A DNA stretch of 64,000 nucleotides from Halichondria panicea (taxonomy: Eukaryota > Porifera > Demospongiae > Suberitida > Halichondriidae). Numbering within the stretch: position 1 is the first letter of the stretch; each line of letters begins with the position of its first letter. Of this stretch, positions 40,774 to 43,700 are shown one piece after another. Below the pieces are notes generated by a model, which was given only the letters and a program-made list of their open reading frames with translations, was not told where the DNA came from and ran no database searches. The stretch lies in assembly GCF_963675165.1 (NCBI RefSeq), contig NC_087389.1, positions 2,266,001 to 2,330,000 on the forward strand. Reading direction: 5' to 3'. The position numbers and the translations under genes are program-made.

Positions 40774-43700
40774 CTAATGATCATGTTGGTGGTGAACGTC
40801 TCTCTCTAGCGAGTAAATTTTGGCTTTGAGGTTCTGTAAATCTCCGACAAGCTTCTTTGATCTTGTAGCCGTTCTTTTGACGTGTGTGAGAATCTGCATG
40901 TCCTGATCACCATCCAAAGTCATTGTAAGCTACAAGTGTGTGCATGCAGGAATAACTGGGAAATGAAATTCTTGGCAGCCATTTACAGTTAATACCAGTA
41001 CCAAATGTCAATTAGCTGAAAATTTAACACCTTGTGATTCAAAAATACATGCACAAGTACCAGTAAAATATGTTATTACAATCTTATTTTTGCAAAGTCA
41101 TAATAATTTATTATTATGCTTGATGCTTGCAAAATGTTGCAGTATTAATTATGATAACAATTCATTGCTACCGGGTATATTGACATAACAAGCAAACAAG
41201 CACTGCACTACTGCGGTGTTAAATGCCTCATGGCACAATGTATTGTTTTGTTTGTTATGGGAGATTGGAAAAACAGAAGTCTTGCCAGAAGAAAAGAGTG
41301 CGGAACTATTACTCAACAAAACATCAAAAAGGGTGGGAAGTAAAAAAATTCACAATGGCTGCTGGTTGGGAGTACAGCTTTGCAGCTCTTTTCTCATTGT
41401 TGGTTATTGTGCGAACAGATTGCAAGAGTGAAGGCAATACGTACATTATATGCAAGTGTGAAAAAGAACTCTTGTTACCTCTAGCTAGCCTCACAACAAC
41501 CAAGGATGTATTTCATTTCCAAATTATGCTAACCACCGGGACCATGTAAAAGGTATTAGGAGGTCCTGGAGTGGTAATAATTATGTACACGGAAAAAATG
41601 TTTGCTGCTGTTACGCATTTCGTGTGTGCATTTGCGCACCAAAGGATTTTTGTGATATACTATCAAATTTAATGTAAAATGCCGTGACATACACGTACTT
41701 CCGTTTCTCATTCCCATGCTGCAACAGCCTTCGCTGCAAGCATACATGTAACTCAAGATAACTAAAATTCTAAGAAAACGTGGCGTAGTTAGAAAGAAGC
41801 TGATACTTTTGTTGCACTACAGTAGAACCTCGATTATCCGGACACCTTGGTTCCAGAAGCAGGCCGGATAAGTGAATATGCCGGATAATCGAATAGATAA
41901 ACCACGCCTTGATCCACCCACTTTATTGATAAACAGCAGTGCCGCATGGTTGTCTGCGCATGCGCAGAAGATAAGCAGGCATGTCTCCATGGTAACAGCT
42001 GCAACGCGCATGCGCATTTTAGGGACACGCCCATTTTCTGAATTATTTAATCTGATAAAAAGAAAACTGCCAAGCCGGATAATCGAGGTTCCGGATAATG
42101 GAGGGCCGGATAATCGAGGTTCTACTGTACCATCGTTTAGCAGTTACACTTGAAATACACACACACAGTTGCATTCCCAGTGCGGCTAGGCCTCAGGCAT
42201 AATAATTGTAGGGTGTATTAACTAACTCTACCTTAAATAGTTGTCTTTCAACTTCCTTAAGTCTCTGCCGCAATAGTTTAATATCATTTTTGTATCCTTC
42301 AATCTCCAAGGCCCTTCTCTTCTCCAATGCATCATACCTACTGTTCATCAAGCCAAGCCTCTTGGTCATCTTCTCTGTCCTCTGTTGGAAAAGATCCTTG
42401 GAGGCCCCTGTCTCTTCCCTCAGTTTACACAGCTCCTCCTCCATAGTGATACACTGCTCACGATAGTTGTCTGCCAGTTGCTGAGACTGTTGGAGCTGGA
42501 GCTGGAGCTGCTTCACTGATGCAACACCTCGCCACCTGGGTGGAAAGCATGTACCTTTTACAAAACTCCCCCAAACTGTTTTAAATTACAGTGACATTCA
42601 AAACATAAAAGTATTACATTGTAACCAATGTATCGGCTTTAACTGATTAGCACTACTCCTGTAGCTTTTTTCACTTTTCACAAAATTTTTATATCTCGAT
42701 CTGCAGGGAAGGATCACATCTGAAAACTGACCGCACAGCTAGTTTGTAGAGCTATTCTTTTGTATGATTGTGTGTTTATGAGATTCAAAAAACGTTCACA
42801 TGCATAGACATTTCTAAAAGTGCACTATCATCGCACTTCATCGACAAGTCAAGTCAAGTAATAAAGTAAGAAAATAAGTAGATAAGGTTCTTGATAAGCT
42901 TTTCCTCTGTTGCACTCAGTTATTGTCTTCCTTCCTAAATTCTCATCTGTTGCATGTACACGTAAATTACTACCATATAAATCATGACTAAATAGAAAGA
43001 GTTAATATAGCTGCAACCATGGTTGATTAGGTAATTAGTCTCCGGTCCTTTGAATATCCGAGGAAAAAACAAATCTGAGTAACTGCAAACTTACGAAGAG
43101 ATAATTCCCACTAACTCCACCCTCTCCATTCGACAATCTGATACCAAAAAAGCATGGGATACCATAAAAACATTTGCAATGTGCTAGGATTGGCCGGGGA
43201 ACACCAAAAAGCGAATCCGGCGAGAGCGTAACTCCAATCCTTTACAACGTCATGAACATGTACAGCTAAGTGTTGATAGATACACCACAATTGACTATTT
43301 GTAATTAGAAAGGTAATTATCATGCAGTACATGTATAGACTGTACTTCCATCCATCACACATGTATGGTTAAAATGCATGCATAGATGGAGTCAGGACTG
43401 TGTATGTTTAATTTTTTTTTTTAGGCTAAAAGACTTCTGTATAGCTTTCTAGTACATGTAGTCAATATGAGTCCAGTAGAGCTGCTACTGAACTAGCCTC
43501 GAATCCACGCCGATTAAAATACGTATTTTAATCGGCGTGGATTCGAGGCTACTACTGAACATACTGCTACTGAAGTAAGTCTAATGTGAAGATACTGTGT
43601 TGACTGACTAGATCTAGGTATTTCTCTCAGTCTGCTCATCATTGTCATTGTGTTTTGTCAGCTTATCCCCCTTTATTTTTCTGCTAGCTAGAACCCTGCG

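What the first reader, a model, noticed from the sequence alone, without database searches (positions are those of the whole stretch)
43485..43560. A transposable unit that is nothing but a 58-bp perfect palindrome with a 9-bp target duplication
43494-43551 is a loopless perfect palindrome and CTACTGAAC flanks it on both sides as a direct repeat. A 9-bp duplication implies transposase-mediated insertion (Mutator-like enzymes duplicate 9-11 bp), yet the insert is just two fused inverted ends. Perfect arms imply recent insertion or correction between arms. It may represent a minimal mobile unit.
Basis: partly seen in the sequence, partly recalled or inferred. Interest (0 to 1): 0.72.

Follow-up and report, generated by a model that had tools for sequence, protein, structure and literature searches.

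The report
58-bp palindrome insert with 9-bp repeats
An intron of an animal-like gene holds a perfect 58-letter palindrome between two identical 9-letter repeats, which looks like a very small transposon insertion, but only one copy could be seen and no enzyme for it was identified.

Summary
43494-43551 is a 58-bp perfect loopless palindrome and CTACTGAAC abuts it on both sides. The next longest loopless palindrome in the window is 22 bp; 20 shuffles gave at most 22.

It lies in a predicted intron of a minus-strand coiled-coil-like gene, between two older inverted arms of about 73% identity. The best reading is a minimal non-autonomous transposon insertion (a palindromic MITE) with a 9-bp target-site duplication; I hold this at about 0.5. 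The assignment to Mutator-like elements rests on duplication length alone: no transposase in 105 ORFs tested, no second copy of the arm in the window, and no whole genome held.

One point weakens the 9-bp evidence. CTACTGAA occurs a third time 15 bp further on, and the direct repeat can be read as 12 of 13 bases running into the palindrome's end. A template switch, or repair of a staggered break with folded-back filler, stays possible.

Nearly pure-palindrome MITEs are known (human Made1: 80 bp, 37-bp arms, 6-bp centre). If real, this is a shorter, loopless member of a known kind.

The parts
43494..43522 (+). left arm of the palindrome, TAGCCTCGAATCCACGCCGATTAAAATAC
43523..43551 (-). right arm, 29 of 29 complementary to the left arm, no loop between
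43485..43493 (+). left copy of CTACTGAAC (putative target-site duplication)
43552..43560 (+). right copy of CTACTGAAC
43563..43575 (+). third copy of the flank motif (ACTGCTACTGAAG); shows that the flank belongs to a local repeat
   Evidence: D1; CTACTGAA at 43567
43158..43237 (+). left arm of an older inverted pair that encloses the palindrome
   Evidence: 73% identity over 97 aligned columns, gaps counted; no convincing target duplication
43701..43800 (-). right arm of the older inverted pair
42536..43848 (-). predicted intron (GT donor at 43848, AG acceptor ending at 42536) of a minus-strand coiled-coil-like gene, containing all of the above
   Evidence: splice motifs and open flanking frames, prediction only; the downstream ORF has a weak Pfam ATG14 match below the curated cut-off

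Best explanation
A very short non-autonomous DNA transposon (a palindromic MITE) made of two fused 29-bp terminal inverted repeats. A transposase encoded elsewhere made a 9-bp staggered cut in the intron and joined the palindrome, and gap filling left CTACTGAAC on both sides. The loopless centre most likely arose earlier, when a longer element lost its interior by fold-back copying of one end. Shown: palindrome, flanking direct repeat, position. Inferred: transposition, the outside transposase, the fold-back origin.
For: The direct repeat abuts both ends of the palindrome exactly, at a length that MULE-type enzymes are reported to make (8 or 9 bp for Muta1; most commonly 9 bp for Tm1). Removing the palindrome and one repeat leaves an uninterrupted site. 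The neighbourhood holds other inverted-repeat elements, including a pair at 41818-42129 with CAGTAGAACCTCG ends and TA on both sides. The arm's 15-bp core has 18 matches with up to 4 mismatches outside the palindrome against a mean of 8.1 for 200 shuffled cores (4 of 200 reach 18), a weak sign that it resembles dispersed sequence; with up to 3 mismatches the excess is not clear (2 against 0.7; 35 of 200 reach it).
Against: No second copy of the arm in the window with up to 3 mismatches; the best gapped match (score 22) lies within the range of 15 shuffled arms (20-26). No transposase in the 105 ORFs tested. The flank motif has a third copy nearby, and the direct repeat extends to 12 of 13 bases by running into the palindrome, which a true 9-bp duplication predicts only by coincidence (about 6%).
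Confidence: 0.5

Rival explanations
1. Template switch during replication. A pre-existing 29-bp stretch between local CTACTGAAC repeats was copied back onto itself, and synthesis returned to the template through the short homology GCTA that the palindrome end shares with the repeat.
For: The palindrome's right end GCTA fits the local repeat (GCTGCTACTGAAC against GCTACTACTGAAC). Template switching is reported to create new perfectly paired stems, with novel hairpins of tens of bases (PMC8794818, passages).
Against: It does not by itself explain a direct repeat placed exactly at both borders; it needs the repeats to be there beforehand with the arm between them. A zero-length loop is not the usual outcome of a hairpin fold-back (inference).
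Confidence: 0.2
2. Repair of a staggered break. A break with 9-base overhangs was filled in, making the direct repeat, and a folded-back piece of DNA was captured as filler.
For: It gives the same anatomy without a transposase. The arm was seen only once in the window.
Against: It needs two unusual events at once: a 9-base stagger and a perfect palindrome as filler. No source for the filler was found in the window.
Confidence: 0.18
3. Clean insertion of the palindrome at the junction of a tandem 9-bp duplication that was already there.
For: The flank belongs to a local repeat, and 2.8% of 20,000 random 9-mers in the window have an 8-of-9 copy within 40 bp.
Against: Perfect tandem 9-bp pairs are rare: 8 of 63,982 starts, of which 2 overlapping starts at one place are not short-period repeats; without the palindrome the copies here would have spacings of 9 and 15, not one period (from the positions).
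Confidence: 0.05
4. Library or assembly artefact, such as a transposase-inserted linker (Tn5 also duplicates 9 bp; recalled) or a cloning-host insertion.
For: A loopless palindrome between 9-bp repeats is what a symmetric Tn5 linker would leave (recalled).
Against: The arm is not the Tn5 mosaic end (best ungapped match 10 of 19). No match at E up to 1 in E. coli genomes, plasmids or phages.
Confidence: 0.05

Closest known systems
Made1 (human mariner-derived MITE)
   Same: A very short element that is nearly all palindrome and can form a stable hairpin (80 bp, two 37-bp repeats, 6-bp centre; PMC1784062, passages).
   Different: Here 58 bp with no centre, and a 9-bp flank where mariner elements have TA (recalled).
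Tm1 Mutator/Foldback family of root-knot nematodes, including MITE-like members
   Same: Inverted-repeat elements with mostly 9-bp target duplications (45 of 53 complete elements have 8-10 bp; PMC3169594, passages).
   Different: Tm1 ends are composite, with tandem 13-15 bp units, which are absent here; the elements whose length I saw are 1080 and 2593 bp (the length of the MITE-like members I did not see).
Muta1 MULE of Aedes aegypti
   Same: 8 or 9-bp target duplications without apparent sequence preference (PMC5225508, passages).
   Different: 3198 bp with 145-bp terminal repeats and a transposase.
Palindromic repeats among MITE-like elements of Anopheles gambiae, and in C. elegans as cited there
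   Same: Transposable repeats described as palindromic (PMC3212995, passages).
   Different: The 32 Anopheles MITE-like clusters, six of them palindromic, are 430-1678 nt long.

Membership tests
MITE (non-autonomous inverted-repeat transposon) | terminal inverted repeats and no coding capacity | tested here: met
   58 bp, all inverted repeat
MITE (non-autonomous inverted-repeat transposon) | target-site duplication abutting both ends | tested here: inconclusive
   9-bp direct repeat present, but the motif is part of a local repeat
MITE (non-autonomous inverted-repeat transposon) | many copies with unrelated flanks in the genome | not testable with these tools
   no genome held; single copy in the window
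Mutator-like element (MULE) | 8-10 bp target-site duplication | tested here: inconclusive
   9 bp, with the same reservation about the local repeat
Mutator-like element (MULE) | long terminal inverted repeats, typically over 100 bp | tested here: not met
   29-bp arms; the typical value is from PMC5225508 (passages)
Mutator-like element (MULE) | shared ends with an element that encodes a MULE transposase | tested here: inconclusive
   no second arm in the window and no transposase in 105 tested ORFs; the rest of the genome is not available
Merlin-type element | 8-9 bp target-site duplication and ends shared with a Merlin transposase element | not testable with these tools
   features recalled; no genome to search
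Template-switch hairpin | inverted copy of a local stretch without a target duplication, returning through short homology | tested here: inconclusive
   a GCTA homology exists, but a direct repeat is also present

The most novel reading that the evidence does not exclude
A eukaryotic transposon family whose whole mobile unit is two fused 29-bp ends: a 58-bp loopless palindrome moved by a transposase that duplicates 9 bp. It would be smaller than Made1 and without any internal spacer.
Probability: 0.35. Interest if true: 0.5.

Novelty: new member of a known kind. Interest (0 to 1): 0.33.

Why it matters
If the palindrome is a family, it would be a mobile DNA transposon unit smaller than Made1 and raise the question how a transposase pairs two ends that touch (inference). 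As a single copy it is an ordinary, if neat, insertion.

Tried and rejected
Search for the arm in public collections. An 18-base core gave 2 IMG/VR loci, both isolated half-site matches with no palindrome in the stretch shown, and 0 in genome contigs. A 17-base end gave 1 IMG/VR locus, again an isolated match. Palindromic patterns gave 0, 2 and 0 in IMG/VR; by eye the 2 share little beyond the letters that the pattern demanded.

The pattern GCCTCGAATC...GATTCGAGGC gave 23 bacterial loci in genome contigs. By eye 17 of 23 share one more letter with our arm (C), and the interiors otherwise differ; rejected as relatives.

Patterns from the enclosing inverted pair and from the 2929 hairpin gave 0 each in IMG/VR. 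Rfam at gathering scores and the tRNA search of the window gave nothing. Tandem Repeats Finder found no array at 43000-44000.

A link to the pogo-type ends at 41818 and 42129 was considered. On the minus strand the flank plus arm resembles GTACAGTAGAACCTCGATTATCC (score 20, reached by 7 of 2000 shuffles). This is after the fact, and the flank is a direct repeat, not inverted, so it was not adopted.

A recalled dispersed motif (CCTCGAATAAACGCC) has 9 matches with up to 3 mismatches, 2 of them in the palindrome, against 0.5 expected; outside the palindrome 7 against a mean of 1.3 for shuffled motifs, 3 of 300 reaching that. A variant gave 12 against 0.4, some of them the pogo-type ends. The motif was not found in the paper library; the resemblance stays unexplained.

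No listed title or abstract start described a 58-bp loopless palindrome with a 9-bp duplication. Of the listed papers I saw passages of five and of the others the listing only.

Full report
What is there. No genome is held for the window. Its genes look animal-like: dynein heavy-chain domains between about 15 and 31 kb, Bap31, trypsin and asparaginase pieces. I suspect a sponge from sequence style, but no call shows it. At 43494-43551 lies TAGCCTCGAATCCACGCCGATTAAAATAC followed directly by its reverse complement. The 58 bp cannot be extended. The next longest loopless palindrome in the window is 22 bp, and 20 mononucleotide shuffles gave 12-22 bp. CTACTGAAC abuts both ends and occurs nowhere else in the window.

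Is the flank a target duplication? The chance of nine matching bases at that place is about 5e-6 by composition. Identical 9-mers at a spacing of 67 occur at 2 of 63,924 positions, this pair included, and the mean over spacings of 40-100 is 4.4. Against this, CTACTGAA is present a third time at 43567, and one search aligns three 13-nt copies, the second made of GCTA from the palindrome plus the right CTACTGAAC. About 2.8% of 20,000 random 9-mers in the window have an 8-of-9 copy within 40 bp, and at least three of the four bases next to the 9-mer would agree by chance in about 6% of cases. So a 9-bp duplication is the simplest reading, but it is not clean evidence.

Surroundings. The palindrome sits in a predicted intron, 42536-43848, of a minus-strand gene whose flanking exons read open. 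It is enclosed by an older inverted pair, 43158-43237 and 43701-43800, about 73% identical, for which I found no convincing target duplication. Perfect arms inside diverged arms fit a younger nested insertion, or arms kept equal by copying. As RNA the minus strand of 43470-43590 folds with a 27-bp stem and a 4-base loop from the palindrome (-62.3 kcal/mol for the 121 nt, z = -10.1), as such a palindrome must; no function follows from that.

Other palindromes. A scan for ungapped arms with loops of 0-30 bases and a score of at least 16 found 3 places: this one, 2929-2992 (30-bp arms, 4-base loop) and 48370-48504. Only this one had a flanking direct repeat of 4-13 bp within 3 bases of its ends. 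The 2929 hairpin can be read as an insertion into TTGATCAA with GATC duplicated, which is a reading, not a test. The window's self-comparison lists 55 repeat pairs, many of them inverted.

Search for relatives. The arm has no other match in the window with up to 3 mismatches, and its best gapped match does not exceed those of 15 shuffled arms. Its core has a moderate excess of matches with up to 4 mismatches (18 against a mean of 8.1; 4 of 200 shuffles reach it) but no clear one with up to 3 (2 against 0.7; 35 of 200). Pattern scans of IMG/VR and of bacterial and archaeal genomes found only half-sites or palindromes with other interiors; these collections are not expected to hold the host, so the absence says little. 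E. coli, plasmid and phage records gave no match.

Transposase. 105 ORFs were scanned against Pfam at E up to 0.01: all 19 ORFs of at least 120 aa listed and all 93 of at least 70 aa listed, which covered starts at 24.0-36.2 and 40.4-64.0 kb; 7 ORFs are in both lists. None matched a transposase. ORFs of 70-119 aa outside those two stretches (apart from none), and shorter ones anywhere, were not scanned.

Mechanism and verdict. Most likely (0.5) this is a minimal palindromic MITE inserted by a transposase from elsewhere. Its loopless centre probably came from fold-back copying of one end (inference). Template switching (0.2) and repair of a staggered break with folded filler (0.18) remain, mainly because only one copy is visible and the flank is part of a local repeat. 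A clean insertion between repeats already present (0.05) and a sequencing-linker artefact (0.05) are unlikely: the arm does not match the Tn5 mosaic end. Membership of the Mutator-like superfamily is not shown: 29-bp arms do not meet the usual long repeats, and no linked transposase was found. Nearly pure palindromes are known as MITEs, Made1 above all, so the finding is a new member of a known kind unless a genome-wide search shows a 58-bp family.

Noticed in passing
window 2929-2992: A second near-perfect hairpin (30-bp arms, 4-base loop), perhaps an insertion into TTGATCAA with GATC on both sides.
   Followed up: partly
window 48280-48665: Several nested inverted repeats, including 48351-48524 (about 82% identity to its own complement) and 48532-48612.
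   Followed up: partly
window 41818-42129: Inverted pair CAGTAGAACCTCGATTATCCGG with TA on both sides; looks like a pogo/Tigger-type MITE (name recalled).
   Followed up: partly
window 50511-51571 and 60034-61049: Two copies of a repeat of about 1 kb in inverted orientation, 80% identical.
   Followed up: no
L006, L008, L012, L019, L021, L022, L023, L026: One Planctomycetota MAG (VGZE01) holds at least eight hairpins with GAGCCCGCCTCGAATCCG-type ends and varied interiors; looks like a bacterial palindromic repeat family.
   Followed up: no
L010, L011, L018, L024: A similar 63-bp hairpin in four Nocardia genomes.
   Followed up: no
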